Part shown: piece after piece, positions 8,524 through 64,000 of the stretch
How positions within the stretch are numbered: the first letter of the stretch is position 1
Layout of the letters: each line of letters begins with the position of its first letter
NCBI GenBank assembly: GCA_037974665.1
Contig: CM075783.1
Span: forward strand, 16,896,762 to 16,960,761
Length of the DNA stretch: 64,000 nucleotides
Direction of reading: 5' to 3'
Source of the DNA: Ehretia macrophylla
Lineage: Eukaryota; Streptophyta; Magnoliopsida; Boraginales; Ehretiaceae
Program-made: the position numbers and the translations under genes
The notes under the pieces: generated by a model
Told to the model about the DNA's origin: nothing
Databases searched by the model: none
What the model saw: the letters and a program-made list of their open reading frames with translations, nothing else

Positions 8524-9063
8524 GTTAGAATCACTCGATCGTATCTCTCATGTGTGTAAACTTATAAGCACTAAGGTAAGTAACTTCAAGTTAGCCTATA
8601 TATATATATAAACACAACACATGTCACATCAAATACAATCAAGATGTATTTTAATTTTCTCTTTAATTTGTTCATCTCTTCTCTTTGCATCTTTTTCTAA
8701 CCCAACAACATGGTATCAGAGCTACCGTTTCGGTAACTCGACTTGCTTGCATCTCATCTTTATCATTATTTTATTCGCAGCTATCAACAAATCAAGCAAG
8801 ACATCATCCTAACCACCTCAACATTCATAATCTCTTTGTAAACACAACACATGTCACATCAAATACAATCAAGATGTATTTTAATTTTCTCTTTAATTTG
8901 TTCATCTCTTCTCTTTGCATCTTTTTCTAACCCAACAACATGGTATCAGAGCTACCGTTTCGGTAACCCGACTTGCTTGCATCTCATCTTTATCATTATT
9001 TTATTCGCAGCTATCAACAAATCAAGCAAGACATCATCCTAACCACCTCAACATTCATAATCT
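8524..9063 (+). mobile_element. Copia-type LTR, primer-site and leader remnant
   Basis: From TGTTAGAATCACTCG (8524) the sequence reads as a short LTR with a TATATATATATAAAC box (about 8599-8613) and an end CCCAACA directly abutting TGGTATCAGAGC (about 8711-8722), the tRNA-iMet primer-binding site typical of plant copia elements. Leader sequence follows. There is no downstream polyprotein; only this 5' fragment remains, and part of it is duplicated in tandem. Confidence 0.65.
8611..9063 (+). repeat. 230-bp tandem duplication across LTR/primer site
   Basis: Unit 1 is 8611-8840 and unit 2 is 8841-9063. I see about one mismatch over 223 aligned bases. Each unit contains LTR end, primer-binding site and leader, so the window shows two consecutive LTR-end/primer-site junctions. 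Near identity implies a recent local duplication. Confidence 0.9.
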
Positions 9064-21003: not shown

Positions 21004-21218
21004 TGTGACGCTTGGGAATTTTATCACATCTTTTAAATAACTGTTGCATAACTACTTGTGCATTTTATATGCATTTCTTTTCTTGTTAAATTGTTTTATT
21101 ATTGGGTACTATTCATAAGAATTTTGCCTGTCTTAAATACTCGATTTAATATTTTTTATAAACAACGAGACTTATAAAAGGATTCAAAAACTTGTTGTTT
21201 TAGACTTTAGAGGCTGGG

Positions 21219-23729: not shown

Positions 23730-24994
23730 CTGGGAACATGCATTTGAAAAATGATTTGTACATCGCTTGAATAGTATTACGTAAGTGTAACGTAGTTATT
23801 TAGTAGTCTTTTAAATTGAGTTGATAACTTGGTTGGACAAAGTTTTTGCTAGCATTTTGACTTACAGTACAATACCTACTTATACTATAAACATCATGCA
23901 TCACATATACAAGCAAATTAGCTAAAAAACAATTGAAAAAATTCTCATTTTGTCCCCCCCATACCCGACGGCAACAAGAAGGAAAAGGAGGAGAAAAATC
24001 AATCCTTGCATCTTGGCCTCCTAGATTGACTTTGGAAGATTTTTGGAGCACCTAGGAGTATCACCACCTTGCCTACACCTATAATTTGTGAGGGAATTGC
24101 ATATATTGTTGTTTAAAGTTTATGCTCACATTATAACTTTTCTTGAATTGATGTTGTTAGCTTCTATAATGTTCATATATTGCTGTATATTGCTTATTTA
24201 TGCTATCAAGACTTAGAATGTAGAACTTGTTGGCTTGTTCCATGGTTGAAGCTTGAGATTGCATGAAAGGGAAGATGAATAGTGACAAAAATTAGGGTTT
24301 TGATATATCTTGCTATTTAGAGTGAATTGATGTTTCCTTTAGGTTCCCTAGACGTTATTAGAACTAATTGAAAGCTCATGTGAGGTGAATTGCTCGAATT
24401 TGTGTTAAAATGCTAAATTGGCAAACTTTAAAAAGGGGGTTTTTCACGAAATGAAATCCGGGCACGTTTGGACCTTAGATTAGGTATTCTTAGGGCATGG
24501 AATCACTTTTGGTGCTTTCGTTGCATAAAATTGGGGTCCGGATAGGGTAGGTATAGTTAAAACCCACTCGGGGCCTTCCCGAGCTTTTGTCTCCAAAGTA
24601 GGGTTAGGGCCTAGGTAGGTGTCTTTTGGCCTTCCTAGGAATGTAGAATGTTTAGCTTGTGAATTTGGTATCTTGAATCTTGCGTGGAATAAGAAATTGC
24701 ATGGTTAACAAAGGGGAAAATGTGAAAATAGATGCTTTGGTGTTTGTAAGAACTTGTAGATGCTTGTTGGGTGTTTATATTCATGGAAAAGATATGTTTA
24801 AGCTATTTATAGAGTTTTGTGGGAAATCATGATATTTGTCTCTTTTGTGACTATATAGTTGTTTCGTGTATATTTGGCTTATATTATGAATAATTGTAAG
24901 GGCGGCCTACTTTGTCGTCCATCTTATGTGTTATTTGGTGATCTTGGTTCTTGCGGACTTGTTTCGGGGTTCCGCAACCTTTTCGGATATGGTA

Positions 24995-27487
24995 TGTCAC
25001 GCCCCAACATGACCCCTCCTATGATCAGTCAGGACGCAACGGAATTTCGGCAGTATAACGACAGTAAATAGGACACCGAGGTTCCAAACCAACCTCATTA
25101 AACATCATACATCCAGCAACTCCTTAATTCAAACAACAACATACAACACAATCATATTATACAATAAACCATCCTCGTTATACGCCTCCGTTCCAACATA
25201 ACATACAATACCTCAACCTTATCATACATTTCAAAAATAAGTTGAGACACATTTACAACTTAACCATAAACAAAAGAAAACCGCTAAGTTAACATCATTT
25301 GGATCATCATCTTTTCAATATCTATTACATTAAGAACCACAAAGCATATAAAAGTCTATTAAGCTAATATACATGACATTAAACAACATATAATCATGGA
25401 TAAGACTCGGGAACATATGACTCGTCCACGTAAAGCACATTTTCCACATTCTCCTCTTCAGGAGGCACATACCCGTAATCCGGCTCTGCAACACCTGTAA
25501 GCATGCATTAATAGAGAGTGAGCTTATATACATAAGCCCAGTGAGGATCCGATAGATCTCAACAGTATTCACTACGCTCCTTGGATTTGGTCCTTTGAGC
25601 AAGTAAACACACAACAACATAAATAAAGCTATCATCACATAACAACATAAATAATGCTATCATCACATAACAACATAAATAATGCTATCATCACATAACT
25701 ATATAACCAATCAATAAGGATACTCTATTTGGTGTAGCTCCAAACGCCATCACGATCTCAACCGTTCTTCTTATAACTCTCCATTACTCACGCACCCGAG
25801 GTACCTCACTATCCCCTTCCCTCCATGACATCTCCGTCATGCGAGCTGGGGGTAGCCTATGGCAGTCATGCCGGTTTCAACCCGACAGCCCGACGCTGCC
25901 CGAGAGGTGGCACACACATACCAAGGCTCCATATTCATCAATCATCATGCAAGCATAAATCGATCAATCAATTGGGAGATCAGCAACAAGAGTGCCCGAT
26001 TCCCGCATTCAATAATAATCAATCAATAACATCAATATAACATCAATATAACATCAATATTAAATTAAACATCAAACAACGTAGTTAGATGACAAAGTAG
26101 GCCATCTAACCGGACATGCATAATATTCATAATTAAACTCTAAATTACTCAACAACAACTCACCATTCATCACTCGAACACTACCCAACCATCTAAGGCA
26201 TCGTTCAAGAAATTAAAGAATAACAACCTAAACTTCTAAAATTCATAACTTACAATCTACTAATCCAAACATTGCCAAATCAGTTCCTATCACTCACCCA
26301 TTCAACCTACTACATTAGCCCTCTCGGAAATCCACCATAACACCTCCAAAACATGCCCGATAACCCTAAAACCCTATGACGTCATGGCTGGATTTTCTGG
26401 ATTTTCACACGAACAATGTAATCGAAAATTCGGCATTACAACAGCGCTAACACGTAATTATCAAGTATTTAGAAATTGACGGCAATCGATTTCGAGCAAC
26501 GCAACTCAATTAAATCAACTTTGAACATTTTAATCAAAATTAAATACCCGGAAAATAAAAATTATGCTATATCCGACAGAAACTCGTAGTATTAGTATAT
26601 AATGATCCCTAGCATGCAAGGAGCAATAATCTAACATCAGATTTCAATTCTAACGGTTCAATCTTCATTTATACGCAAAAACACAAAAATGACATTTTGA
26701 GATCTAGAATTTTTCTCTCACCTTTGATGTGTTTTGATGCAAGAAATGTGTAGAATGGATGCCAAACAATCAATTTCAAGCTTTGAATCACTCAATTCGG
26801 CTTTGAAACGCAAAATCTGTGAGAAAAATGCTTTGAAAATGCCTTATCTTTCTCCTCCAAGGAGCCACGGTTTTGTGTGTGTTTGTGGAGTGTGTTTTGT
26901 GTTGTGTGAGTGTGTGTTGATGACATTATATAATAAAAAGCTTGGTCAATTAAAAAAATGCAAAGTCAAAGTTAGTTTTAATAGGTATTTTTGTGTTTTT
27001 AATGACTTTAATTGCATTTTAGTGCTCACCAAGTTAAAAATAATTATGCAACCCCCAAAATATCACAAGTGGATTATTTTTAGGTGACAAGAAGTTTTAC
27101 ATTCAAAGAATTCCACCCGAGTCGGCTTAAAACTCGATTTTCGCAAAAGTCGGTGTAAAAACCCTAATAAATTCTTAAGCCGATTTTAAAACCGTTTTCA
27201 TCAAACACAGGTCTATTAAAGTCCGTGGACTAGGTCTAGAAGGGTTAAAAAGACCAGTTTCAAAATTATAGCGGACGTGTTTCGAAAACACTATTCACTG
27301 AAAATCGACGATAAAATTTTTGACTCCGTTTTTGATGAAAATTTCATGAATGCACATTTAGCACGTATTAGGAGTATTGAAATCAAAATTATAACTTTCT
27401 AGGTCCTATAGCACATAAACAGGTCATATGCACGCAAAACGAGACAAAGCACGTAAAACGAGATAAGCAGAAAAGTGGGGTTTCACA
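24995..27487 (-). repeat. Z1 3' LTR
   Basis: 2493 bp, on the minus strand TGTGAAACCCCACTTTTC...GGGGCGTGACA. Holds the stem-loop with the GCCTACTTTGT loop at 26084-26110 and a GC-rich island at about 25790-25925. Confidence 0.95.
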
Positions 27488-30271
27488 TTCTCCCCTCCTT
27501 AAAACAATTGCGTCCGCGCAATTCTCGAACTGATAGACAATTAAATCCTCAATCGTTACGCATAACAATACTTCTCTTAGTTCCCATTTATCTCTTAGGA
27601 TAATACCTAACCAAAGACCTCAAAAGAACAAACTCTGTTGACTGCAAGTTGATGATCATAATTCCAAGACAATCTCCAATTCATAATTCTCTCCTACCTA
27701 ATATCATATTGCATATGAAAGAAATTGCAACTCCAAGTCTTAGCGTGACACCACTAATTATCAATCATCTCATACTACACAAAAGAGCTCTATGAATACC
27801 CCGAGGGTTTAAAAATTCATTCACGATAACATGAATGATTATTGATCAAGGAAATATCTCAAAAGTGACATTTGTCAGAATATGGCTCTTATGAAATTTA
27901 CAAGGAAATACGAATATGAAAAATCATATTCGAGCCAACAATCAAGTGAACAGGAGGTCAAACAGGTTAGAGAATCAAGAGGTTAAAAGTTTAATAAGGA
28001 AGCATGATAACTAAGATAAGAAATGTCTCAGCACCTTTTAGTTAAATAAGTACGAACAAAGGATAATGGCGAGTCAAAACAGTACTGAGTATGTTGAACA
28101 AAAATTCCTGAACAAGTAGATATTTCAATTCTCGATGATTGTTCAAGGAACCCACAAGTAAGTTGTGCTTGAGGTGAAATAAAATTAAGAGATAAGAGAT
28201 GATTAATTCAATAGAAAATATGAGTGTCAAGATAATGAGTATCTTAGCACGCAATAACCAAAGAAGTATTAATAAGAAGGACAATGTCGAGTATATTGAA
28301 TGAGCAATTACAAGCAAAGTAATGACTCAAGATTTAATAATGAAACAATAGGATTAACAAGGATCAACAAGAATGACAATGATGTACTTAGGTAGGGAGT
28401 ACATCAAACAAGTGAAATCGAATAAGTAAAATGGTATACCAAAGGTGAAATTACTTCCAAATAAATAGTAATAGAATGAAATGAAATATTGAAACGAATG
28501 GCTAAAGATATAGAATGAAATATAGAAGTCTCAAACCTTAACTCCAATAAGCGACATTGCTATAAGAAGCAAATATGAATGTTAAGAATGGAAACAATGT
28601 CAAATGAGTATAGGATCCATTAATCCAATAAGCAAAACTTTCAAGAAACAATTGATAGGCTAGAAAAGTGTAACTCTCTCTCAAATAAGTGAGAATAGAG
28701 TAAAAGATAATAATAAGACCGATAGAATTATGGAGTACAAGAAGGGTGTCCCATCTACACACTTAAACACCAACAAGTCAAATCCTACAATCTATCTTCC
28801 TCCAAAACAAGACACTAAGGAGATCTAAAGAACCTAATGAGTCATAACAATCACCCGACAAGATAAATCACTCCAAAATTTTTCATTCCGTACCAGACCA
28901 ATCACTAAACAAGATAAATCACCGATTACCCAACAAGATTCACTAATGAATACTCCAAAATCTGATAACACAATACATATTCATATTAACCCATTATAAC
29001 ATAAGAGAATCCCCAATCAAAAATTTAGAAAGTCATACCACCTAGAACTCAAAAGCTTGATGTAGGCAAGTAAATGTTCAGTCACCAAAATGCATTCTTA
29101 TTTCCTCAAATAATTCTATCTCCGAACAATTACATCTTCGAATAGAGTAACTTTAGTCAGGAATCACTCCAATTGTCTCCAAGGCTTAAAGATCAAAACT
29201 CCAAAATATCCATTAATAATATAGCAATCCCAAATAGTAGAAATATTCACATGTTATACCACACTTCATTCCATTCACAAATATACATCACTAATTCCTC
29301 AAATAAATTCATTCTAAAATAACCTCAAGAAAGTATAATCTGAGTTGAGACTCCAAAAGTGTCTAATCACAACCTCACAGAAACCTCAACTTATGATTCA
29401 TCTCCAAGTAATAATAAGTTAAACATGGCAACAAAAGTGATTATAATCATCAAGATACGTTGCTATTTCCCCGAACAATTTCATTCTCGCTAAAGGAACA
29501 TCAAGATCAATCCACTAAGCCGAAACTAAAATCCATAAACATAACAATTAAAATCTAACTGATAAACTTCTAGAATAATAATAATTCAAAATCATGGCCT
29601 ATCTCTATTTCTGAAAACTCTTACAACCACCCTAGACATTAAAAGGTCACTCACGAGTTAAAACATGTATGCAACTATATCATATGAAAGACAAGTACAA
29701 CGTAATGCGCAATTATCATACAATGCAACATTATCACATAACACACAATTCAACATATAAGAAGCCAACATCACATAAACAGGTTATATCACAGAAGTAA
29801 GTTATAAACAATTAAAGTCACATAAGCAACAAACTTCACATAAGACAAGTTGATCACGTAACTCACATTGGTCACTTAAAGTATATTGACCACCTAAAGC
29901 ACGTTGTTTCACATAAGCTAGTTATAAACAATTAAAACCACATAAACAACTAACTTCACACAAGGCACAAAATCACATAAAACACAATTGTCACATAATA
30001 CACATTAATCACATAATGCACATTAATTACAACACATTGAGTACGTATAGCACGTTATCACATAAAACATATTGACCACATTAGTTCACTTAACACACAA
30101 GGCATACTGGTCACATAGAAAGTTAGACACATAAGTAAATTAATCACATAAACATATTAACATATGTTTCACTTTTCTTTCACTTAATACATACTTGCAT
30201 GCTTAGACCACTACCCACATTCCGAGGATACCCCGGCTGACAGCTAACATGCGCTCTGATACCACTTAAAC
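27488..30271 (-). other. Z1 internal region, no protein genes recognised
   Basis: Primer-site side (29690-30180) is a degenerate run of TCACATAA/CACATTAATCACATAA-like motifs. The rest is AT-rich without retroviral-type domains. The end next to the 3' LTR carries GCGCGGACGCAATTGTTTTAAGG (minus strand), a block also seen in Z2 and, slightly changed, in X. Z2 has a colinear copy of nearly equal length (about 2.78 kb). Confidence 0.85.
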
Positions 30272-32764
30272 TGTCACGCCCCAACACGACCCCTCCTATG
30301 ATCAGTCAGGACGCAACGGAATTTCGGCAGTATAACGACAGTAAATAGGACACCGAGGTTCCAAACCAACCTCATTAAACATCATACATCCAGCAACTCC
30401 TTAATTCAAACAACAACATACAACACAATCATATTATACAATAAACCATCCTCGTTATACGCCTCCGTTCCAACATAACATACAATACCTCAACCTTATC
30501 ATACATTTCAAAAATAAGTTGAGACACATTTACAACTTAACCATAAACAAAAGAAAACCGCTAAGTTAACATCATTTGGATCATCATCTTTTCAATATCT
30601 ATTACATTAAGAACCACAAAGCATATAAAAGTCTATTAAGCTAATATACATGACATTAAACAACATATAATCATGGATAAGACTCGGGAACATATGACTC
30701 GTCCACGTAAAGCACATTTTCCACATTCTCCTCTTCAGGAGGCACATACCCGTAATCCGGCTCTGCAACACCTGTAAGCATGCATTAATAGAGAGTGAGC
30801 TTATATACATAAGCCCAGTGAGGATCCGATAGATCTCGACAGTATTCACTACGCTCCTTGGATTTGGTCCTTTGAGCAAGTAAACACACAACAACATAAA
30901 TAAAGCTATCATCACATAACAACATAAATAATGCTATCATCACATAACAACATAAATAATGCTATCATCACATAACTATATAACCAATCAATAAGGATAC
31001 TCTATTTGGTGTAGCTCCAAACGCCATCACGATCTCAACCGTTCTTCTTATAACTCCCCATTACTCACGCACCCGAGGTACCTCACTATCCCCTTCCCTC
31101 CATGACATCTCCGTCATGCGAGCTGGGGGTAGCCTATGGCAGTCATGCCGGTTTCAACCCGACAGCCCGACGCTGCCCGAGAGGTGGCACACACATACCA
31201 AGGCTCCATATTCATCAATCATCATGCAAGCATAAATCGATCAATCAATTGGGAGATCAGCAACAAGAGTGCCCGATTCCCGCATTCAATAATAATCAAT
31301 CAATAACATCAATATAACATCAATATAACATCAATATTAAATTAAACATCAAACAACGTAGTTAGATGACAAAGTAGGCCATCTAACCGGACATGCATAA
31401 TATTCATAATTAAACTCTAAATTACTCAACAACAACTCACCATTCATCACTCGAACACTACCCAACCATCTAAGGCATCGTTCAAGAAATTAAAGAATAA
31501 CAACCTAAACTTCTAAAATTCATAACTTACAATCTACTAATCCAAACATTGCCAAATCAGTTCCTATCACTCACCCATTCAACCTACTACATTAGCCCTC
31601 TCGGAAATCCACCATAACACCTCCAAAACATGCCCGATAACCCTAAAACCCTATGACGTCATGGCTGGATTTTCCGGATTTTCACACGAACAATGTAATC
31701 GAAAATTCGGCATTACAACAGCGCTAACACGTAATTATCAAGTATTTAGAAATCGACGGCAATCGATTTCGAGCAACGCAACTCAATTAAATCAACTTTG
31801 AACATTTTAATCAAAATTAAATACCCGGAAAATAAAAATTATGCTATATCCGACAGAAACTCGTAGTATTAGTATATAATGATCCCTAGCATGCAAGGAG
31901 CAATAATCTAACATCAGATTTCAATTCTAACGGTTCAATCTTCATTTATACGCAAAAACACAAAAATGACATTTTGAGATCTAGAATTTTTCTCTCACCT
32001 TTGATGTGTTTTGATGCAAGAAATGTGTAGAATGGATGCCAAACAATCAATTTCAAGCTTTGAATCACTCAATTCGGCTTTGAAACGCAAAATCTGTGAG
32101 AAAAATGCTTTGAAAATGCCTTATCTTTCTCCTCCAAGGAGCCACGGTTTTGTGTGTGTTTGTGGAGTATGTTTTGTGTTGTGTGAGTGTGTGTTGATGA
32201 CATTATATAATAAAAAGCTTGGTCAATTAAAAAAATGCAAAGTCAAAGTTAGTTTTAATAGGTATTTTTGTGTTTTTAATGACTTTAATTGCATTTAATT
32301 GCTCACCAAGTTAAAAATAATTATGCAACCCCCAAAATATCACAAGTGGATTATTTTTAGGTGACAAGAAGTTTTACATTCAAAGAATTCCACCCGAGTC
32401 GGCTTAAAACTCGATTTTCGCAAAAGTCGGTGTAAAAACCCTAATAAATTCTTAAGCCGATTTTAAAACCGTTTTCATCAAACACAGGTCTATTAAAGTC
32501 CGTGGACTAGGTCTAGAAGGGTTAAAAAGACCAGTTTCAAAATTATAGCGGACGTGTTTCGAAAACACTATTCACTGAAAATCGACGATAAAATTTCTGA
32601 CTCCGTTTTTGATGAAAATTTCATGAATGCACATTTAGCACGTATTAGGAGTATTGAAATCAAAATTATAACTTTCTAGGTCCTATAGCACATAAACAGG
32701 TCATATGCACGCAAAACGAGACAAAGCACGTAAAACGAGATAAGCAGAAAAGTGGGGTTTCACA
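30272..32764 (-). repeat. Z1 5' LTR
   Basis: 2493 bp, same length as its partner. Stem-loop at 31361-31387. Confidence 0.95.
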
Positions 32765-33125
32765 TGGTAGCTTCGAGAAACACGGGTGGCATCGGGCTTG
32801 CCATGCTCTCTCGACTACCATAGTGCCAATTCCCTTCCTCTCGTTGAGTATACTCCACTACCCCAGAGACGTGGTTCACCTCATTGGGGCATATGGACCT
32901 ACCTTAGAAGAAAGGGTCGTAGGATCGGGGTACATTCGGAATACCCCATTTTGAAAGGACATGGGTTTAGCCGGTATTTGCTTGAAAATCTTGGCTCATG
33001 GCACTTGATTGAAGACAAGTGGAACTGTATTCTTTTTATATGTGGTTAAATACTTATCTTTCTAGTTTTGTTACTTTGAGTTGTATATGTGTTATCTTTG
33101 TTGCATATCATGTTGCACGCCCTGG

Positions 33126-33333
33126 TGTGGCGCTCCCACATCGAAAAATTAGGAAGTGGTACAGCTGAATATAAGGGGGCGACTCCTTGTATTAGCCAAG
33201 GCGCCTTTTGAGGAGAGATCCTCGAGAGGACAAAACCGTGAGAGTATTGGTTCCCTTCGGGGCTTGCTCAAAGCGGACAATACCTTGGTAGTGACGGACT
33301 CGTGCCCGTGATAAACCGTGGCGGGTCGTTACA
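33126..33333 (+). mobile_element. TRIM-like solo LTR inside X'
   Basis: 208 bp with TG...CA ends (TGTGGCGCTCCCACATCG to GGGTCGTTACA) and target duplication CCTGG at 33121-33125 and 33334-33338. The X LTRs are uninterrupted at the same place (GCACGTTGGCATGTTGCATC), giving an empty site. Sequence style (TCCCACATCG, AAGGCGCCTTTTGAGGAGAG) resembles plant terminal-repeat-in-miniature elements. No interior, so solo. Confidence 0.8.
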
Positions 33334-33955
33334 CCTGGTATGTTGCATCACCTCCCTCGCTAGGCAACATTGTTGCTCACTCCTTATTTAACATGTTTGA
33401 GGAGAAGCTGAGGTGAACCCTCATCTAGTAGCAGTAGAGGAAGAAGATGAAGTGTAAGTAGAACAACTTTCGTGACTTTCTTGTGTGTTAAGGTTGGCTG
33501 ATATATGTGGCTTGTATGGCAGATGTTGGTTGTTGTTCATTTTGAGACCTTATGGTCTTGTATGTATTTGGTGGTTGTAACTAATGTGTAATCTTGTATG
33601 TTGGATAGCAAAGTAGATGGCATGTAATAAATGATAATAGACTTACTGCTTGCATGCTTGTGTGAACTTAGTTTATAAGTATAGCTTACTACTTATAACT
33701 TGGAGTTTGGAGAAATACCTTGCATGCTTGTATGATATATACATTTTGTTGTTCCAAGGCTCGGATGGCCTTGAGGAGCTGGTTGGCTTTGTGAATCTTG
33801 AAGCTAGGTTGTATGAATGTTTGATTGTGGTTCAGGAATTGTATGTGACTATTTGCAGGTACCAGTTTAGTCCATGGTATAAAGAAGACTTTATCCGTGT
33901 GACGAGTTCGGACTTGACTTATAATGTGGGGTTGAGTTCGGAACGTTACATTTCT

Positions 33956-51853: not shown

Positions 51854-54237
51854 TGTGAAACCCCACTTTTCTTCCTTATCTCGTTTTACGTGTTATACCT
51901 CGTTTTGCGTGCATATGACCTGTTTATGTGCTATAGGTCCTAGAAAGTTATAATTTTGATGTCAATACTCCTAATACGTGCTAAATGTGCATTCATGAAA
52001 TTTTCATAAAAAACGGGATCAAAAATTTTATCGTCGTCTTTTAGTGAATAGTATTTTGGACGCACGTCCGCTAAAATTTTGAAACTGGTCTTTTTAACCC
52101 TTCTAGACCTAGTCCATAGACTTTAATAGACATGTGATTGATAAAAATAGATTTCAAATCGGCTTAGGAATTTATTAGGGTTTTTACACAACTTTTTGCG
52201 AAAAACCGAGTTTTAAGCCGACTCGGGTGGAATTCTTTGAATGTAAAACTTCTTGTCACCTAAAAATAATCCACTTGAGATATCTTAGGAGTTGCATTTT
52301 TATTTTGAGCCTTGGTGAGCAATAAAATGAGTTTAAAGTCAATAAAACACAAAAATTAATTAGTTTTTATAACTTAAACTATTTTATATATTAACTATTT
52401 ATGCTCACACTAGTTACACACACTCATATAACACAAAAACACATCCAATTTCACACACAAGGCCGAGAGAAAGAGGAGGAGAAAAAGAAAGAGAATTTCA
52501 AGCTTTTTTAATCAATTTTTCAAAGAAAAACTTGGTTTTTGTCCGTAAAACTTCGCACCGACTTGGATTCCGCTTGTTGGGCACGCACTTCACGCATCCC
52601 TAGGCTTTTATCGCATCAAAGGTGAGAGAAAAATTCTAGATCTCAAAATGCCATTTTTGTCTTTTTGCGTATAAATGAAGATTGAACCGTTAGAATTGAA
52701 ATCTGATGTTAGATTATTGTTCCTTGCATGCTAGGGATCGTTTAATGGTAATACTACGAATTTCTGTCGGATATAGCATAATTTTTATTTTTCGGGTATT
52801 TAATTTAGATTAAATTGTTCAAAGTTGATTTAATTGAGTTGCGTTGCTCGAAATCGATTGCCGTCAATTTCTAAATACTTGATAATTACGTGTTAGCGCT
52901 ATTGTAATGCCGAATTTTCAATTACATTGCTCGTGGGAAAGTCCAAAAAATCCAGACAAGACATCCTAGGGTTTTAGGGTTATCGGGCATGATTTGGAGG
53001 TATTATGATGGATTTCCGTGAGGGCTAATGTAGTAGGTTGAATGGGTGAGTGATAGAAACTGATTTGGCAATGTTTGGGTTAGTAGAATGTAAGTTATGA
53101 ATTTTTGAAGTTTAGGTTGTCATTCTTTAATTTCTTGAACGATGCCTTTAGATGATTAGGTGGTGTTTGAGTGTTGCATGGTGAGTTGTTGATGAGTAAT
53201 TTAGGGTTTAATTGTGTATATAATGCATGTCCGGTTAGATGGCCTACTTTGTCATCTAACTAAGTTATTGTTGTTTAAATGTTAATTGATGCTATCAATG
53301 ATGAATAAATGATGATTGATTGATGATTGATGATGATTATAGAGTCTTGGTATGTGTGTGCCACCTCTCGGGCAGCGTTGGGCTGTCGGGTTGATAACGG
53401 CATGACTGCCAGAGACTACCCCCAGCTCGCATGACGGAGGTGTCATAGAGGGAGGGGCTAGTGAGGTACCTCGGGTGCGTGAGTAATGGGAGTTATAAGA
53501 AGAACGGTTGAGATCGTGATGGCATTTGGAGCTACACCAACTAGAGAGAGTATCCTTTATTGAATGGTCATATAGTTATGTGATGATAGTATTATCTATG
53601 TTATTGTGTGTTTACTGACTCAAAGGATTATTCCAAGGAGTTTAGTAGACCTTGCTCGAGATCTATCGGATCCTCACTGGGCTTATTTATATAAGCTCAC
53701 TCTCTATTATTGCATGCATACAGGTGTTCTTTGGCAGGATTACGGGTACGTGCCTCCTAAAGAGGAGAATGTGGAAAAAATGTGCCTTACGTGGAAAAGT
53801 CTTATGTCCCTGAGTCTTATCAGTGATGCTATGTTGTTTACTATCATGTATATTAGGTTAGTAGACTTTTATCTGTTTTGAAATTCCTATTGTATAAGAT
53901 GCTGAAAACATCATGAGTTAGTTTATACTATCTTAGTAGTTATTCTTTTGCTCTTGTTTAGATTGCTAGGTTGGTATTAATATGGTTGTATTGTATATCA
54001 AAGTTTAAAAGTTATGTTGGAATGGAGGCATATAACGATGAATGTTTATTGTATATTATGGGTATGATGTATGTTGTTATGTTATTGAGGAGTTGTTGTT
54101 GTATGGTTTATGGAGTTGATGTATGAGGTCCTATTGAGGTTGGTTTAGAGCCTCGGTATCCTATTTACTGTCATTATACTGCCGAAATTCTGTTGCGTCC
54201 TGACTGATTATAGGAGGGGTCGAGTTGGGGCGTGACA
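51854..54237 (+). repeat. Z2 5' LTR
   Basis: 2384 bp, TGTGAAACCCCACTTTTC to GGGGCGTGACA. Stem-loop at 53234-53260, GC-rich island about 53350-53500, conserved GGTGAGAGAAAAATTCTAG at 52621 and CATGCATACAG at 53713-53723. Confidence 0.95.
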
Positions 54238-57200
54238 TTTAAGTGGTATCAGAGCTTGATTAGCTGTCAGCCGGGGTATCCTCGGAATGTGGGTAGTGGT
54301 CTAAGCATGCAAGTATGTATTAAGTGAAAAAAAGTGAAACATATGTTAATATGTTTATGTGATTAATTTACTTATGTGTCTAACTTTCTATGTGATCAAT
54401 ATGCTTTATGTGTTAAGTGAACTAATGTGGTCAATATGTTCTATGTGATAACGTGTATTATGTACTTAATGTGTTTTAATTAATGTGCATTGTGATTAAT
54501 GTGCATTATGTGATCAATGTGTATTATGTGACAATTGTGTTTTATGTGATTTTGTGCCTTGTGTGAAGTTAGTTGTTTATGTGGTTTTAATTGTTTATAA
54601 CTAGCTTATGTAAAACAACGTGCTTTAGGTGCTCAATGTACTTTAAGTGACCAATTTGAGTTACGTGATGAACTTGTCTTATGTGAAGTTTGTTACTTAT
54701 GTGACTTTAATTGTTTATAACTTACTTCTGTGATATAACCTGTTTATGTGATGTTGGCTTCTTATATGCTAATTGTGTGTTATGTGATAATGTTGTAATA
54801 TATGATAATTATATAATATGTTGGTACTTGTTTTCATGAGATATAATTGTATATATTATATAACTGTGGGTGATTCTTTTAGGTGAAGTAAGGTTGACTG
54901 CAAGAGTTTTTGGAAATAGAGGTAGGCCATGATTTTGAATTATTATTATTCTAGAAGTTTATCAGTTAGATTTTAATTGTTATGTTTATGGATTTTAGTC
55001 TCGGCTTAGTGGATTGATCTTGATATTCCTTTAGCGAGAATGCAATTGTTCGAGGAAATAGCAATGTATCTTGATGATTATAATTACTTTTGTTGCCATG
55101 TTTAACTTGTTATTACTTGGAGATGAATTATAAGTTGAGGTTTCCATGAGGTTGTGATTAGACACTTTTGGAGTCTCAACTCAGATTATACTTTCTTGAG
55201 GTTATTTTAGAATGAATTTATTTGAGGAATTAGTGATGTATATTTGTGAATGGAATGAAGTGTAGTATAACATGTGAGTATTTCTACTATTTGGGATTGC
55301 TATATTATTAATAGATATTTTGGAGTTTTGATCTTTAAACCTTGGAGACAATTGGAGTGATTCCTGACTAAAGTTACTTTATTCGAAGATGTAATTGTTG
55401 GGAGATAGAATTATTTGAGGAAATAAGAATGCATTTTGGTGACTGAACATTTACTTGCCTACATCGAGCTTTTGAGTTCTAGGTGGTATGACTTTCTAAA
55501 TTGTTGATTGGGGATTCTCTTATATTATAATGGGTTAATATGAATCTGTATTGTGTTATCAGATTTTGGAGTCTTCATTAGTGAATCTTGTTGGGTAATC
55601 AGTGATTTATCTTGTTTAGTGATTGGTCTGGTACGGAATGAAAAATTTTGGAGTGATTTATCTTGTTTGGTGATTGTTATGACTCCTTAGGTTCTCTAGA
55701 TCTCCTTAGTGTCTTGTTTTGGTAGGAGATAAATTGTAGGATTTGACTTGTTGGTGTTTAAGTGTGTAAGTAGAACACCCTTCTTGTACTCCATAATTCT
55801 ATCGGTCTTATTATTATATTTTACTCTATTCTCACTTACTTGAGAGAGAGTTACACTTTGTAGCATATCAATTGTTTCTTGAAAGTTTTGCTTATTGGAT
55901 TATTGGATCCTATACTCATTTGACATTGCTTCTGTGACACCCGAGAATTTCACCATAAATTTATTTATAACCGTTGCATACCTATGTGTGCATTTTCACG
56001 TGCATCATCTTTTTTGCTTAATTATTTTTATTAGGGGTTACTATTCATAATATTTTTGACTGTTTCAAAAGTTTGATATTAAATTTTTCCTAGGTCACCT
56101 GACATTTAAAAGGAATCAAGAAATTTTCGTTTTGAACTTTCGAGCTTAGGAGTGTGCGTTTGGAAAATATTTTCCGTGATAATTGAATAGTGTTACGTAA
56201 GAATAGTACTAGTTGCAACTAAAAAAATAATTGAAATTGCATTTTGGCCTAGTTTGACTAAGTTTTTAATGGAATTTGACCCCATTTAATAACACATACA
56301 CATACATAAAACAAGCTTAACATCACATAACATTTTAGTCATCAAAAACAAAACAAAAAATGACCTCCAAGTCCCTCCATTTGGCCGACCAGCTATAGGA
56401 GAGAAAAGATGAGATTTTGCTTCAACATCCTTGCATTTTGAGCTCTTAGATTGATCTTGGGAGGGTTTTGAGCAACATAGAGACTTCAACAAGCTTCTTC
56501 ATCTTCAAAATTGTGAGGGAGTCTCATTTTATTGAGTTTAAAGTTTATGTGCATATGTTTAATTTTCTTGATTTGTCAATTATAGCTATATATCTTGTTA
56601 TGAATGCTTCCTATGAGTTATTTAAAGTCTCTAGAGCTAACTTTTGAGGTTTGATAACATAGTTAATGGTTGAATGTTGAATTTGATCAAAGAGATGATG
56701 AATAGTGCTTAGAACTAGGGTTTTGAGAAAAATTGCAAATTGGCTTGAATTGATGCCTCAATTAGGTGCTCTAGACCTTAGGGAAGATAGTTGAAAAGCC
56801 ACGTTAGGTTGAAACACTCGAATTTGAATTTAATTGCATAATAAGCTTACTTTAAAAAGGGGGTTTTATACGTTAAGCAATCCGGGCAAATTTGGGCATC
56901 GATTTGGGTATCCTTGAGCTAAGGAAGCACCTTTGGTGCTTTCGTTTCGTGAAATTGGGGTTCGGTTAGTATGGCTATAGTTCAAACCCGTTCGGGGCCT
57001 TCCCGAACTTTTGCTTCAAAAATGAGTTTTAGTGACTTTAAAGGGTACCTTTGAGCTTAATTAGGAATATAGAAAGACTAGGGTATAATTGGGAATCTCG
57101 AACCATGCTTAGGAGAAATAAAGCTCGGTTAAAGAAAGGGGAAAAGTAGTTTTTAGCCTTTTTAGTTGCAATTGGAACTTGTTGTGTGTTAGTAATGCCT

Positions 57201-57329
57201 TGCATTGAATATTTAGGATGTATTTAAGTTATTTGAGTAGATTATTGGAAGAAATTATGTTGATTGCTTCTTTTGGCATCTATTAGTTAATATCGTGCTT
57301 TTATGAACTTTTATCGTGCATATATGTGT

Positions 57330-57355
57330 GAGGGCGGCCTACTTTGTCGTCCCTC
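57330..57355 (+). other. Conserved stem-loop with GCCTACTTTGT loop (X example)
   Basis: GAGGGCG (57330-57336), loop GCCTACTTTGT (57337-57347), CGTCCCTC (57348-57355): seven pairs with one bulged T. Same element at 60402-60427 (X 3' LTR), 22301-22326 (Y, minus), around 24897-24927 (X'), 26084-26110 and 31361-31387 (Z1, minus), 53234-53260 and 63948-63974 (Z2). In Z the arms are GTTAGATG and CATCTAAC, different from X but still complementary. Confidence 0.8.
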
Positions 57356-57418
57356 TTACGTGTTATGTGATATATTGATTGTTTGTGGCTTGTTTTGGGT
57401 TGCGCAACCTATATCGGA

Positions 57419-57478
57419 CATGGTAGCGTCGAGAAACACGGGCGGCATCGGGCTTGCCGTGCTCCCTCGACTACCATG
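57419..57478 (+). other. Long hairpin in X LTR GC-rich island
   Basis: CATGGTAG-CG-TCGAG (57419-57433) pairs with CTCGACTACCATG (57466-57478), with an inner CACGG..GCCGTG pairing. Also in the X 3' LTR (60491-60550), Y and, in changed form, X'. Confidence 0.7.
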
Positions 57479-58415
57479 GTGCCTATTCCCTTCTCGCTGA
57501 GGCATACTCCACTACCCCAGAGGCGTGGTTCACCTGCTGGGCATGGACCTACCTCGGGAGAAAGGGTCGTAGGATCGGGATAAATTCGGAGTATCCCAAT
57601 TGTTGGTGTTTGGGGTTTGCTGGCATGTTCGTGATGCTCGTGGTTCGTGGCTCGTGAATGAAGACTTGGAAGTGGAACCGTATCCTTTTTAAAGTGATTA
57701 ATTGCTTGGCTTATTGTCTTGTTGGTTTATGTGGATTATATATGTTTTCTTGTGTTCGCATATCATATTGCACGTTGGCATGTTGCATCACCTCCCTCAC
57801 TGGGCAACATTGTTGCTCATTCCTCATTTAATATGTTTCAGGTGAAGTTGAGGTGAATCCTCAGCTGATAGAAGGAGAGGAAGTTCACGTAGATCAGAAT
57901 CCGTGACTTTGTGTGCTGAGGTGGATTTTATGTGCTTCTTGCGTGGAGTTCTTGTTAATATTGTATTTTGAGACCATGGGGTCTTGTGTATATGTCTAGT
58001 AGCTGTGGACTAGAATGTTAAAGAAAGTTGTTGGATTGTAATAATGAATTCTAGACTTTAATTTCTCTTGCATGCTTGGAGTGTTTGTTGATCTTCATAT
58101 GGAACTTAGAATTTTATTGTATTTAACTACTTATGGCTAAACCAACTATCTCGCATGCTTGTGTGCTTAAGTAGAATGTTGTTGCTCCAAGGCTCGGATG
58201 GCCTTGTGATTGTGTTTTAGCTTTGGAGACATTAGTAGATAAGTTGTTGTTATAGTTCAAAAGTCTTGAGTGGCTATTTGCAGGTAACAGTTTTGTCCTA
58301 TAAACAGGGGAGACTCCGTCCCTTTTTCCCTAAATTTCGTGCCCGGGGTTTGGATTTGGGTGAGAATAGCATGATAAATAGGTGTCCCGGTCTCATGAGG
58401 GATCGGGGCGTTACA

Positions 58416-59004
58416 GAAGTGGTATCAGAGCTTAGCTAGTTAGCTAGGCGCAAGCCGGGATAGGGTCTTCGGCTTGTGGGGTAGTGGCCTTAGTGTCAAT
58501 GTGTTTAGAAAGTATATGTGCATGTCTTATGTGATAAGAGAGTTAATGTGATCAATGTGCTTATGTGATCAATATGTTTTATTTGTTGAGTGAACTAGTT
58601 GTGGTTTATGTGCTTGTGTGATAAGTGGAATGGATGTGGTTAACGTGCTTGATGTGTTTATATGTTCAATGTGTTTATGTGATTAATGCGAGCTATGTGA
58701 TTAACGTGCCTTGTGTGAATTATGTGCTTTGTGTACTTGAGTGCTTGATATGCTTTATATGACTAATGTGAATATGTGATTAACTTGTTTTATGTGAAGT
58801 TGTTGTTTAAATAACTTAGTAGTTTATAATTGGTGTATGTGAACTTGTTGCTTATGTGACTTTACTTGTTATATATTGCTAACGTGATCAATGTGTTTTA
58901 TGTGTTAAGCATGCTTACGTGAAACAATGTGTTTTATGTATGAGGGTAACTCGCTTGTATGTGTAAGAAATTGCGAGGACGCAATTTTTGTAAGGAGGGG
59001 AGGG
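58416..59004 (+). other. X internal region (589 bp)
   Basis: Primer site at the left end; 58540-58930 is a degenerate TATGTGA/CAATGTG run like that of Z2; then GCGAGGACGCAATTTTTGTAAGG leading into the purine tract. No coding capacity. Confidence 0.9.
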
Positions 59005-61487
59005 TGTGACACCCGAGAATTTCACCATAAATTTATTTATAACCGTTGCATACCTATGTGTGCATTTTCACGTGCATCATCTTTCTTGCTTAATTATTTT
59101 TATTAGGGGTTACTATTCATAATATTTTTGACTGTTTCAAAAGTTTGATATTAAATTTTTCCTAGGTCACCTGACATTTAAAAGGAATCAAGAAATTTTC
59201 ATTTTGAACTTTCGAGCTTAGGAGTGTGCGTTTGGAAAATGTTTTCCGTGATAATTGAATAATGTTACGTAAGAATAGTACTAGTTGCAACTAAAAAAAT
59301 AATTGAAATTGCATTTTGGCCTAGTTTGACTAAGTTTTTAATGGAATTTGACCTCATTTAATAACACATACACATACATAAAACAAGCTTAACATCACAT
59401 AACATTTTAGTCATCAAAAACAAAACAAAAAATGACCTCCAAGTCCCTCCATTTGGCCGACCAGCTATAGGAGAGAAAAGATGAGATTTTGCTTCAACAT
59501 CCTTGCATTTTGAGCTCTTAGATTGATCTTGGGAGGGTTTTGAGCAACATAGAGACTTCAACAAGCTTCTTCATCTTCAAAATTGTGAGGGAGTCTCATT
59601 TTATTGAGTTTAAAGTTTATGTGCATATGTTTAATTTTCTTGATTTGTCAATTATAGCTATATATCTTGTTATGAATGCCTCCTATGAGTTATTTAAAGT
59701 CTCTATAGCTAACTTTTGAGGTTTGATAACATAGTTAATGGTTGAATGTTGAATTTGATCAAAGAGATGATGAATAGTGCTTAGAACTAGGGTTTTGAGA
59801 AAAATTGCAAATTGGCTTGAATTGATGCCTCAATTAGGTGCTCTAGACCTTAGGGAAGATAGTTGAAAAGCCACGTTAGGTTGAAACACTCGAATTTGAA
59901 TTTAATTGCATAATAAGCTTACTTTAAAAAGGGGGTTTTATACGTTAAGCAATCCAGGAAAATTTGGGCATCGATTTGGGTATCCTTGAGCTAAGGAAGC
60001 ACCTTTGGTACTTTCGTTTCGCGAAATTGGGGTTCGGTTAGTATGGCTATAGTTCAAACCCGTTCGGGGCCTTCCCGAACTTTTGCTTCAAAAATGAGTT
60101 TTAGTGACTTTAAAGGGTACCTTTGAGCTTAATTAGGAATATAGAAAGACTAGGGTATGATTGGGAATCTCGAACCATGCTTAGGAGAAATAAAGCTCGG
60201 TTAAAGAAAGGGGAAAAGTAGTTTTTAGCCTTTTTAGTTGCAATTGGAACTTGTTGTGTGTTAGTAATGCCTTGCATTGAATATTTAGGATGTATTTAAG
60301 TTATTTGAGTAGATTATTGGAAGAAATTATGTTGATTGCTTCTTTTGGCATCTATTAGTTAATATCGTGCTTTTATGAACTTTTATCGTGCATATATGTG
60401 TGAGGGCGGCCTACTTTGTCGTCCCTCTTACGTGTTATGTGATATATTGATTGTTTGTGGCTTGTTTTGGGTTGCACAACCTATATCGGACATGGTAGCG
60501 TCGAGAAACACGGGCGGCATCGGGCTTGCCGTGCTCCCTCGACTACCATGGTGCTTATTCCCTTCTCGCTGAGGCATACTCCACTACCCCAGAGGCGTGG
60601 TTCACCTGCTGGGCATGGACCTACCTCGGGAGAAAGGGTCGTAGGATCGGGATACATCCGGAGTATCCCAATTGTTGGTGTTTGGGGTTTGCTGGCATGT
60701 TCGTGATGCTCGTGGTTCGTGGCTCGTGAATGAAGACTTGGAAGTGGAACCGTATCCTTTTTAAAGTGATTAATTGCTTGGCTTATTGTCTTGTTGGTTT
60801 ATGTGGATTATATATGTTTTCTTGTGTTCGCATATCATATTGCACGTTGGCATGTTGCATCACCTCCCTCGCTGGGCAACATTGTTGCTCATTCCTCATT
60901 TAATATGTTTCAGGTGAAGTTGAGGTGAATCCTCAGCTGATAGAAGGAGAGGAAGTTCACGTAGATCAGAATCCGTGACTTTGTGTGCTGAGGTGGATTT
61001 TATGTGCTTCTTGCGTGGAGTTCTTGTTAATATTGTATTTTGAGACCATGGGGTCTTGTGTATATGTCTAGTAGCTGTGGACTAGAATGTTAAAGAAAGT
61101 TGTTGGATTGTAATAATGAATTCTAGACTTTAATTTCTCTTGCATGCTTGGAGTGTTTGTTGATCTTCATATGGAACTTAGAATTTTATTGTATTTAACT
61201 ACTTATGGCTAAACCAACTATCTCGCATGCTTGTGTGCTTAAGTAGAATGTTGTTGCTCCAAGGCTCGGATGGCCTTGTGATTGTGTTTTAGCTTTGGAG
61301 ACATTAGTAGATAAGTTGTTGTTATAGTTCAAAAGTCTTGAGTGGCTATTTGCAGGTAACAGTTTTGTCCTATAAACAGGGGAGACTCCGTCCGTTTTCC
61401 CCTAAATTTCGTGCCCGGGGTTTGGATTTGGGTGAGAATAGCATGATAAATAGGAGTCCCGGTCTCGTGAGGGATCGGGGCGTTACA
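59005..61487 (+). repeat. X 3' LTR
   Basis: 2483 bp, same length as the 5' LTR. Confidence 0.95.
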
Positions 61488-62567
61488 GCTTCTATTCTTA
61501 ACATTCATATTTGCTTCTTATAGCAATGTCGCTTATTGGAGTTAAGGTTTGAGACTTCTATATTTCATTTTATATCTCCTGCCATTAGTTTCAATATTTC
61601 ATTTCATTCTATTACTATTTATTTGGAAGTAATTTCACCTTTGGTATACCATTTTATTTATTCGATTTAACTTGCTTGATGTACTCCCTACCTAAGTACA
61701 TCATTGTCATTCTTGTTGATCATTGTTAATCCTATTGTTTCATTATTAAATCCTGAGCCATTACTTTGCTTGTAATTGCTCATTTAATATACTCAGCATT
61801 GTCCTTTCTTATTTATACTTCTTTGGTTATTGCGTGCTGAGATACTCCTTATCTTGACACTCATGTTTTCTATTGAATTAATCATCTCTTATCTCTTAAT
61901 TTCATTTCACCTTCAGTACAACTTACTTGTTGGTCCCTTGAACAATCATCAAGAATTGAAATGTTTACTTGTTCAAGAATGTTTGTTCAACATACTCAGC
62001 ACTGTTTTGACTCGTCATCATCCTTTGTTCGTACTTATTTAACTGATAGGTGCTGAGACATTTCTTATCTTAGTTATCATGCTTCCTTATTAAACTATTA
62101 ACCTTTTGATTCACTAACTTGTTTGACCTCTTGATCACTTGATTGTTGGCTCGAATATGATTTTTCATATTCGTATTTCCTTGTAAATTTCATAAGAGCC
62201 ATATTCTGACCAATGTCACTTTTGAGATATTTCCTTGATCAGTAATCATTCATGTTATCGTGATTGAGTTATTAAACCATCGGGGTGTTCATACAGCTCT
62301 TTTGTGGAGTAGGGGATGATTGATAATTAGTGGTGTCATGCTAAGACTTTGGAGTTACGATTTCTTTCATATGAATTGAAGATTGTCTTGGAATTATGAT
62401 CATCAACTTGCAGTCAACAAAGTTAGTTCTTTTGAGGTCTTTGGTTAGGTGTCATCCTAAGAGATAAATAAGAACTAAGAGAAGTATTGTTAAGTGTGAT
62501 GATTGAGGATTTAATTGACTGTCAGTTCGAGAATTGCGCGGACGCAATTGTTTTAAGGGGGGAAGAA

Positions 62568-64000
62568 TGTGAAACCCCACTTTTCTTCATTATCTCGTTT
62601 TACGTGTTATACCTCGTTTTGCGTGCATATGACCTGTTTATGTGCTATAGGTCCTAGAATGTTATAATTTTGATGTCAATACTCCTAATACGTGCTAAAT
62701 GTTCATTCATGAAATTTTCATAAAAAACGGGATCAAAAATTTTATCATCGTCTTTTAGTGAATAGTGTTTTGGACGCACGTCCGCTAAAATTTTGAAATT
62801 GGTCTTTTTAACTCTTCTAGACCTAGTCCATAGACTTTAATAGACCTGTGATTGATAAAAATAGATTTCAAATCGGCTTAGGAATTTATTAGGGTTTTTA
62901 CACAACTTTTTGCGAAAAACCGAGTTTTAAGCCGACTCGGGTGGAATTCTTTGAATGTAAAACTTCTTGTCACCTAAAAATAATCCACTTGAGATATCTT
63001 AGGAGTTGCATTTTTATTTTGAGCCTTGGTGAGCAATAAAATGAGTTTAAAGTCAATAAAACACAAAAATTAATTAGTTTTTATAACTTAAACTATTTTA
63101 TATATTAACTATTTATGCTCACACTAGTTACACACACTCATATAACACAAAAACACATCCAATTTCACACACAAGGCCGAGAGAAAGAGGAGGAGAAAAA
63201 GAAAGAGAATTTCAAGCTTTTTCAATCAAATTTTCAAAGAAAAACTTGGTTTTTGTCCGTAAAACTTCGCACCGACTTGGATTCCTCTTGTTGGGCACGC
63301 ACTTCACGCATCCGTAGGCTTTTATCGCATCAAAGGTGAGAGAAAAATTCTAGATCTCAAAATGCCATTTTTGTCTTTTTGCGTATAAATGAAGATTGAA
63401 CCGTTAGAATTGAAATCTGATGTTAGATTATTGTTCCTTGCATGCTAGGGATCGTTTAATGGTAATACTACGAATTTCTGTCGGATATAGCATAATTTTT
63501 ATTTTCCGGATATTTAATTTAGATTAAATTGTTCAAAGTTGATTTAATTGAGTTGCGTTGCTCGAAATCGATTGCCGTCAATTTCTAAATACTTGATAAT
63601 TACGTGTTAGCGCTGTTGTAATGCCGAATTTTCGATTACATTGCTCGTGGGAAAGTCCAAAAAATCCAGACAAGACATCCTAGGGTTTTAGGGTTATCGG
63701 GCATGATTTGGAGGTGTTATGATGGATTTCCGTGAGGGCTAATGTAGTAGGTTGAATGGGTGAGTGATAGAAACTGATTTGGCAATGTTTGGGTTAGTAG
63801 AATGTAAGTTATGAATTTTTGAAGTTTAGGTTGTCATTCTTTATTTTCTTGAACGATGCCTTTAGATGATTGGGTGGTGTTTGAATGTTGAATGGTGAGT
63901 TGTTGATGAGTAATTTAGGGTTTAATTGTATATATAATGCATGTCTGGTTAGATGGCCTACTTTGTCATCTAACTAAGTTATTGTTGTTTAAATGTTAAT
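62568..64000 (+). repeat. Z2 3' LTR (partial, continues past window)
   Basis: First 1433 bp, colinear with 51854 onward; stem-loop at 63948-63974 near the window end. Confidence 0.95.

What the first reader, a model, noticed from the sequence alone, without database searches (positions are those of the whole stretch)
53234..57355. Stem-loop with invariant 11-base loop and covarying arms shared by two LTR families
Seen directly: every X- and Z-family LTR in the window long enough to show it carries GCCTACTTTGT flanked by short complementary arms (X: GAGGGCG / CGtCCCTC; Z: GTTAGATG / CATCTAAC; X': TAAGGGCG / CGtCCatCTTA). There are eight instances: 57330, 60402, 22301, about 24897, 26084, 31361, 53234, 63948. 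The arms differ between families yet remain paired, while the loop does not change, although the rest of the LTRs hardly align. That pattern points to selection on a folded RNA or cruciform, for instance a packaging, dimerisation, RNA-stability or host-factor site. I know of no named motif of this kind, but cannot search.
Basis: partly seen in the sequence, partly recalled or inferred. Interest (0 to 1): 0.78.

Follow-up and report, generated by a model that had tools for sequence, protein, structure and literature searches.

The report
Conserved RNA hairpin in retrotransposon LTRs
Two plant retrotransposon families whose long terminal repeats otherwise hardly resemble each other share one small RNA hairpin at the same place, with an unchanging loop on differing but still paired stems, which suggests a signal in the element's RNA that some protein must recognise.

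Summary
GCCTACTTTGT occurs 8 times exactly, once in each of the 8 X/Z LTR copies that span the point. These are 5 insertions in two lineages. The invariant block is 13 bases (GGCCTACTTTGTC); its outer bases pair (G-C, G·U, C-G), leaving a 7-base loop CUACUUU on a stem that varies and stays paired. It lies 1385-1410 bases into the LTR in both families and is the only colinear exact word of 11 or more between X1 and Z1 or Z2. Stems beat flank shuffles in X1, X2, Z1 and Z2, less so in X'. Covariation proper is weak: one family split, all five core changes transitions. The invariant G·U makes sense RNA fold better than antisense in 6 of 6 contexts folded, arguing for RNA over a cruciform. X and Z show no coding capacity, so shared parts are probably signals read by a helper's or the host's machinery; another hairpin follows in both. 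Best reading: a cis-acting RNA signal in the LTR transcript, most likely for packaging or export. Function is untested and no plant genome could be searched. New member of a known kind.

The parts
53234..53260 (+). hairpin, Z1 5' LTR (10 pairs, loop CUACUUU)
63948..63974 (+). hairpin, Z1 3' LTR
26084..26110 (-). hairpin, Z2 LTR (3' copy)
31361..31387 (-). hairpin, Z2 LTR (5' copy)
57329..57355 (+). hairpin, X1 5' LTR
60401..60427 (+). hairpin, X1 3' LTR
22301..22327 (-). hairpin, X2 solo LTR
24897..24923 (+). hairpin, old X' LTR (weaker, two arm differences from X)
53342..53420 (+). second, long hairpin downstream (79 nt), Z1 5' LTR
   Evidence: fold -30.4 kcal/mol, z -1.67
25851..25929 (-). 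second hairpin, Z2 3' LTR copy
   Evidence: fold -32.5, z -1.56
31128..31206 (-). second hairpin, Z2 5' LTR copy, identical to the other copy
57420..57477 (+). second hairpin (58 nt), X1 5' LTR
   Evidence: fold -25.7, z -3.03
60492..60549 (+). second hairpin, X1 3' LTR
22179..22236 (-). second hairpin, X2
   Evidence: fold -22.3, z -2.24
32764..32821 (+). second hairpin, X' (first base shared with the end of Z2)
   Evidence: fold -24.3, z -3.84
51854..54237 (+). Z1 5' LTR (2384 bp)
62568..64000 (+). Z1 3' LTR, runs off the window
24995..27487 (-). Z2 3' LTR (2493 bp)
   Evidence: target duplication TGGTA
30272..32764 (-). Z2 5' LTR
55933..58415 (+). X1 5' LTR (2483 bp); element nested in Z1, target duplication GCTTC
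59005..61487 (+). X1 3' LTR, 99.2% identical to the 5' LTR
21219..23729 (-). X2 solo LTR, target duplication CCCAG
21004..33950 (+). X' solo LTR, target duplication TTTCT, interrupted by X2, Z2 and a small insertion
54244..54255 (+). Z1 primer binding site TGGTATCAGAGC
58420..58431 (+). X1 primer binding site TGGTATCAGAGC
30253..30264 (-). Z2 primer binding site TGGTATCAGAGC

Best explanation
The site is a sense-strand RNA stem-loop: an invariant tip GGC-CUACUUU-GUC on a family-specific stem, in the middle of the LTRs of two families of non-coding, gypsy-type (Del/Tekay-like) plant retrotransposons. It works as a cis-acting signal in the element's own transcript: a protein supplied in trans reads the loop and its three closing pairs, while the outer stem need only stay paired. 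Because X and Z show no coding capacity, the most likely reader is the Gag or another particle protein of an autonomous helper, and the step is choosing the parasite's RNA for packaging (or bringing it to the particle). Shown here: the hairpin fold (predicted), its common place, its fixed tip and varied stem, the sense-strand preference. Inferred: that the region is transcribed, that selection acts on it, who reads it, and the packaging step. My odds: an RNA hairpin kept by selection about 0.8; a signal for the element's own replication cycle about 0.5; packaging itself about 0.3.
For: Same place in both families (loop offsets 1404, 1410, 1388, 1385 in X1, X2, Z1, Z2; 1385 in X') and the only colinear exact word of 11 or more in X1-Z1 and X1-Z2; 1 of 3000 shuffled X1-Z1 pairs had such a word with 7 pairs in both. 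Flank shuffles reach the stem score in 57 (X1), 46 (X2), 16 (Z1) and 9 (Z2) of 200000. The hairpin window ranks 1st of 151, 3rd of 123, 1st of 130 and 1st of 135 by fold z-score in X1, X2, Z1, Z2. Invariant G.U and sense RNA more stable than antisense in 6 of 6 contexts. Elements without ORFs of 150 aa; X and Z otherwise share LTR ends, PBS with leader, and PPT region, the parts a helper's machinery reads. Precedent: the parasite BARE2 is said to keep packaging and dimerisation signals (PMC3735527, passage); LARDs and TRIMs are said to have well-conserved RNA secondary structures (PMC7215508, passage).
Against: Only two lineages, so covariation is weak: pairs changed on both sides reached by 123 of 500 shuffles and further pair types by 465 of 500, core changes all transitions. 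X' has lost pairs in the bulged register and its stem score is reached by 5497 of 200000 shuffles. Within the X family other stretches are as well kept: 29/30 at offset 1573, 28/30 at 1515 and 1857, against 28/30 at the hairpin; in Z1-Z2 207 of 2508 windows are as identical. No start site, transcript or protein is known; no helper element was seen. The hairpin lies some 1000 bases before the PBS, whereas the yeast Ty1 and Ty3 signals lie in the first few hundred bases of the RNA (PMC4974528, passages).
Confidence: 0.4

Rival explanations
1. The hairpin is a leader or R-region structure read by host proteins that raises export, stability or expression of the transcript, like R-region stem-loops of retroviruses; no helper Gag is involved.
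For: R-region stem-loops are said to enhance gene expression in many retroviruses (PMC3651342, passage) and to underlie residual conservation in long R regions (PMC3601003, passage). TATA-like boxes far upstream (offsets 376 in X2, 531 in Z1, 555 in Z2) would put the hairpin in the transcript.
Against: No start or poly(A) site is mapped; X1 has no strict TATA match there. Nothing here singles out a host factor.
Confidence: 0.27
2. A DNA-level feature: an initiator or other protein site near a TATA box, or a cruciform.
For: Z1 has TATATAA about 25 bases before the loop, and the loop would lie near the expected start site; BARE uses two promoters (PMC3735527 and PMC12786077, passages).
Against: X1, X2, X' and Z2 have no strict TATA match there. 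A DNA site does not need differing paired arms. The invariant G.U is C.A on the other strand, and single-strand DNA folds are weak (-2.5 to -6.0 and -1.1 to -5.1 kcal/mol).
Confidence: 0.1
3. A remnant of common ancestry or of exchange between families, kept by chance, with arms that pair by chance.
For: Colinear words of 13 or more arise in 15 of 3000 shuffled pairs; core changes are transitions only.
Against: Good stems in both families by flank shuffle, joint event in 1 of 3000, and LTRs otherwise unalignable between X and Z.
Confidence: 0.12
4. The hairpin is a source or target of host small RNAs.
For: A maize study reports that miRNA-like structures in genes and transposons correlate with small RNAs (PMC10760457, title and abstract start in the listing).
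Against: The stem is about 10 pairs, short for a plant miRNA precursor (general knowledge), and the element would not be expected to keep it for that.
Confidence: 0.04

Closest known systems
Packaging and dimerisation signals kept by BARE2, and conserved RNA structures of LARD and TRIM elements
   Same: Non-coding or defective plant LTR elements that keep RNA features needed for mobilisation by a helper (PMC3735527 and PMC7215508, passages).
   Different: BARE is copia and its signals were not compared here; this hairpin is inside the LTR and its reader is unknown.
R-region stem-loops of retroviruses
   Same: Stem-loop in the LTR transcript with a short loop (PMC3651342, PMC3601003, passages).
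   Different: Different hosts and sequence; here R is not mapped.
Conserved LTR motifs of Sireviruses
   Same: Short conserved motifs in otherwise divergent plant LTRs, some palindromic (PMC2829016, passages).
   Different: Those are repeated CGG-CCG DNA boxes above a TATA box in copia elements; this is a single hairpin with a fixed loop.
Retrozymes and Cassandra
   Same: Functional RNA inside the LTR of a non-autonomous element (PMC9695139 abstract; PMC7215508 passages).
   Different: No hammerhead, 5S or other Rfam family reaches threshold in the window.
Del/Tekay LTR landmarks
   Same: LTR length and U5 end GGG at -8 to -10 in X1, X2, Z1 and Z2 (PMC4029996, sections 14 and 19 read; ends seen).
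   Different: That study names att sites and CpG islands; the words hairpin, stem and palindrom- do not occur in its text.

Membership tests
Del/Tekay gypsy lineage | U5 att type A, GGG at positions -8 to -10 | tested here: met
   GGGGCGTTACA (X1, X2) and GGGGCGTGACA (Z1 5', Z2); not so in old X' (GGAACGTTACA); rule from PMC4029996 section 14
Del/Tekay gypsy lineage | LTR length in the reported range 1143-4831 bp | tested here: met
   2384-2511 bp in Z1 5', Z2, X1, X2; range from a passage of PMC4029996
Del/Tekay gypsy lineage | Pol with chromodomain integrase | not testable with these tools
   no coding region in X or Z: 0 of 14 ORFs of 150 aa or more lie in them; no helper in the window was identified
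Del/Tekay gypsy lineage | no CpG island in eudicot members | tested here: inconclusive
   GC block 53% GC, CpG observed/expected 0.92 over 249 bases in X1 and 55%, 0.72 over 200 bases in Z1 (stretches chosen by hand); host not known to be a eudicot
LARD / non-autonomous LTR retrotransposon | paired LTRs, PBS, PPT, no coding capacity | tested here: met
   X1 internal 589 bp, Z2 internal 2784 bp; PBS, PPT region; no ORF of 150 aa or more; 8 of the shorter ORFs scanned, none above a Pfam cut-off
Retroviral-type dimerisation loop (self-kissing) | palindromic loop of about 6 bases (recalled) | tested here: not met
   loop CUACUUU and the 13-base block contain no such palindrome (seen directly)
Packaging signal | bound by Gag and needed for packaging | not testable with these tools
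   needs an experiment
Known RNA family | Rfam match at gathering score | tested here: not met
   0 matches in 64 kb
Covarying RNA structure | significant covariation over many independent sequences | tested here: inconclusive
   6 distinct rows, two lineages; covariation score reached by 1 of 500 shuffles, pairs changed on both sides by 123 of 500, further pair types by 465 of 500

The most novel reading that the evidence does not exclude
The CUACUUU hairpin and the long hairpin behind it form a two-part genome-selection signal of Del/Tekay-type plant retrotransposons. It lies in a leader intron within the LTR, so that only unspliced RNA carries it, and unrelated non-coding parasites that depend on the same helper Gag keep its tip unchanged.
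Probability: 0.15. Interest if true: 0.7.

Novelty: new member of a known kind. Interest (0 to 1): 0.45.

Why it matters
How plant LTR retrotransposons, and the non-coding elements that live off them, choose the RNA they package is hardly known. A short fixed tip with exchangeable stems would be a concrete, testable candidate, and a marker for linking parasites to their helpers.

Tried and rejected
Outside relatives. IMG/VR: an LTR-end plus PBS pattern gave 0 stretches; the hairpin pattern gave 4, of which three show the same sequence around the site and none looks like an LTR; a 15-base PBS pattern gave 62, none of which carries the loop; the window's copia reverse transcriptase found no relative. 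Genome contigs: the hairpin pattern (16 fixed bases) gave 108 stretches, where about 120 are expected by hand count in 257 billion bases, both strands, equal base use. The seven LTR stretches cut from the window (X' not among them) were compared with all 174 loci held: no match at E 1e-3. So these collections gave no relatives; that says nothing about plants. No host genome is held.

Literature. Motif letters in open full text: 27 papers that also hold 'LTR' (all listed) and 45 papers for six spellings of the longer motif (40 listed). I judged these by title and opened the passages in two on plant transposons or insertions; both are primers matching by chance. Topic searches (367 papers found and 25 listed; 30 and 20; 35 and 20; 54 and 15; 293 and 15) showed no paper on this motif among the listed titles and abstract starts. 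Most subscription papers are not covered.

Rejected: cruciform, self-kissing dimer (sequence), known Rfam RNA. A model of the eight sites finds only these eight in the window (54-61 bits; next 13.2 bits, E 0.17), so no degenerate ninth copy. A scan of X-family windows for compensatory pairs is led by poorly aligned AT-rich windows and is not used as evidence, except for one well-aligned hairpin listed under noticed. The likeness of X and Z at the apex of the second hairpin (CGGGC.GC.T.GGGCT, by eye) was not tested for significance. Splice-like patterns are common (4-7 donor-like and 1-3 acceptor-like hits per LTR), so the leader intron is only a suggestion.
Full report
What is there. The window is plant-type DNA rich in retroelements: copia pol (RVT_2, rve, gag_pre-integrs), an endonuclease-domain ORF and a C1-domain ORF. 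No host genome is held. The finding concerns five LTR insertions. X1 (+): LTRs 55933-58415 and 59005-61487, internal part 589 bp, target duplication GCTTC, nested in Z1. X2 (-): solo LTR 21219-23729, duplication CCCAG. X' (+): an old solo LTR 21004-33950, duplication TTTCT, interrupted by X2 and Z2. Z1 (+): LTR 51854-54237 and 62568 to beyond the window. Z2 (-): LTRs 24995-27487 and 30272-32764, duplication TGGTA. X1, Z1 and Z2 have TGGTATCAGAGC just after the 5' LTR (an initiator-Met primer site, recalled). None of the 14 ORFs of 150 aa or more lies in X or Z elements. Eight shorter ORFs were scanned, all from the 51854-62600 stretch: none reaches a Pfam cut-off, two sub-threshold hits in one; shorter ORFs of Z2 were not scanned. 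The LTR ends of X1, X2, Z1 (5') and Z2 fit the Del-lineage type A U5 site of PMC4029996 (section read); the old X' end does not.

The observation. GCCTACTTTGT occurs exactly 8 times; nothing else comes within one mismatch; expected 1.17 with one mismatch, 0 of 100 shuffles reach 8. All 8 LTR copies that span the point carry it.

Anatomy. MAFFT of the 8 sites is gapless over 39 columns with 13 consecutive invariant columns, GGCCTACTTTGTC. Folded singly, 8 of 8 form a hairpin with loop CUACUUU closed by C-G, G.U and G-C, all invariant. Outside that, Z pairs AGAU/AUCU and on to GUU/AAC; X pairs GGGC/GUCC without a bulge, or GAGGG/CCCUC with a one-base bulge. For a 10-pair structure 90% of cells pair (0 of 500 shuffles as high); 4 pairs never vary, 3 change on both sides, 1 on one side, 2 are unpaired in the X family; covariation score reached by 1, pairs changed on both sides by 123, further pair types by 465 of 500 shuffles; the structure beats all six slid versions on cells paired and on covariation score. 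RNAalifold predicts the inner 7 pairs, 2 of them changed on both sides. A model of the eight finds no ninth site.

Is it more than chance? Shuffling the two 14-base flanks reaches the stem score (Watson-Crick, one bulge allowed) in 57, 46, 16 and 9 of 200000 for X1, X2, Z1 and Z2, but 5497 for X'. In X1-Z1 and X1-Z2 the hairpin block is the only exact word of 11 or more within 30 bases of the same offset; of 3000 shuffled X1-Z1 pairs 210 had such a word, 15 one of 13 or more, and 1 also had 7 pairs in both. Sensitive blastn between X1 and the Z1 LTR gives the hairpin as the top hit, at a weak E of 0.26, with no other convincing LTR match. By 60-base fold z-scores the hairpin window is 1st of 151 (X1), 3rd of 123 (X2), 1st of 130 (Z1), 1st of 135 (Z2). 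Against: the five core changes between X and Z are all transitions; random transition sets keep all four pairs in 66774 of 200000 cases, substitutions of any kind in 3558 of 200000. The strength lies less in covariation than in two different good stems around one fixed tip at one place.

RNA or DNA. The second closing pair is G.U in every copy, and bulge-free X has another. On the opposite strand these are C.A. Sense RNA is more stable than antisense in 6 of 6 contexts (the other two sites have identical 39-base contexts) at flanks of 10, 14 and 20 bases, for example -13.3 against -8.1 in Z1 and -10.0 against -2.7 in X'; single-strand DNA folds are weak on both strands. This favours RNA of the element's own sense.

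Surroundings. TATA-like boxes lie at offsets 376 (X2), 531 (Z1) and 555 (Z2); X1 has none there; Z1 alone has TATATAA about 25 bases before the loop. Donor-like AAGGTGAGA (Z1 765, Z2 763) and acceptor-like CAGGTG (Z1 1863, Z2 1986) bracket the hairpin, but such patterns are frequent. Transcription and a leader intron are thus plausible, not shown. From loop start to the start of a second, long hairpin there are 83 bases in X1 and X2, 100 in Z1 and 173 in Z2. It is 58 nt in X (z -3.03, -2.24, -3.84 in X1, X2, X') and 79 nt in Z (z -1.67 and -1.56). Its antisense folds slightly better in X and worse in Z. The six Z1/Z2 differences in it are one compensated pair (T-A to C-G) and four unpaired positions. 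X and Z further share the LTR ends, the PBS and leader after it, and the PPT region with a small hairpin.

Conservation within families. X1, X2 and X' agree at 28 of 30 columns over the hairpin, against 48% overall; windows of 29/30 and 28/30 occur elsewhere (offsets 1573, 1515, 1857). In Z1-Z2 the hairpin is 30/30, as are 207 of 2508 windows. So within a family the hairpin is among the best-kept stretches, not alone; between families it is.

Mechanism. X and Z show no coding capacity, so what both retain should be what a helper's machinery or the host must recognise. LTR ends, PBS and PPT serve integration and priming. A fixed tip on an exchangeable stem in the sense RNA is how many protein-read RNA signals look (general knowledge). 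The parasite BARE2 is reported to keep packaging and dimerisation signals (PMC3735527, passage), and LARDs and TRIMs to have conserved RNA structures (PMC7215508, passage). I commit to a cis-acting RNA signal read in trans, packaging first, host export or stability second. Shown: predicted fold, position, fixed tip, varied stem, sense bias. Inferred: transcription, selection, reader, packaging.

Known or new. The kind is known: R-region stem-loops (PMC3601003, PMC3651342, passages), Sirevirus LTR motifs (PMC2829016, passages), retrozymes (PMC9695139, abstract) and Cassandra (PMC7215508, passages). This motif matches no Rfam family, and text searches with their limits showed no paper on it. The Del LTR study does not use the words hairpin, stem or palindrom-. 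Hence a new member of a known kind, of moderate interest.

Noticed in passing
58968-58987 (+), 62532-62549 (+), 27506-27523 (-): A perfect 7-8 bp hairpin (AATTGCG-NGGA-CGCAATT) just before the PPT in X1, Z1 and Z2; recalls the inverted repeat at the PPT of Sireviruses (PMC2829016, passages). Folds.
   Followed up: partly
56990-57008 (+), and the same place in X2 and X': X-family hairpin GUUCGGG-GCCUU-CCCGAAC with unchanged loop and one compensated pair (U-A to C-G) in X'.
   Followed up: partly
58440-59000 (+), 54300-54850 (+): Internal parts of X1 and Z1 share runs of TATGTGAT/AATGTG-like words after the PBS, giving many overlapping blastn matches.
   Followed up: no
33126-33333: A 208-bp stretch TGTGGCGC...CGTTACA inside X', flanked by CCTGG on both sides: looks like a small solo LTR.
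   Followed up: partly
8600-9059: Tandem 230-base duplication, each copy with TGGTATCAGAGC.
   Followed up: no
17946-18188: Three head-to-tail copies of an 81-base unit, 79-89% alike to the first.
   Followed up: no
57398-57409 (+): 12-base perfect palindrome GGTTGCGCAACC in X1 5' LTR and in X2; changed in X' and in the X1 3' LTR.
   Followed up: no
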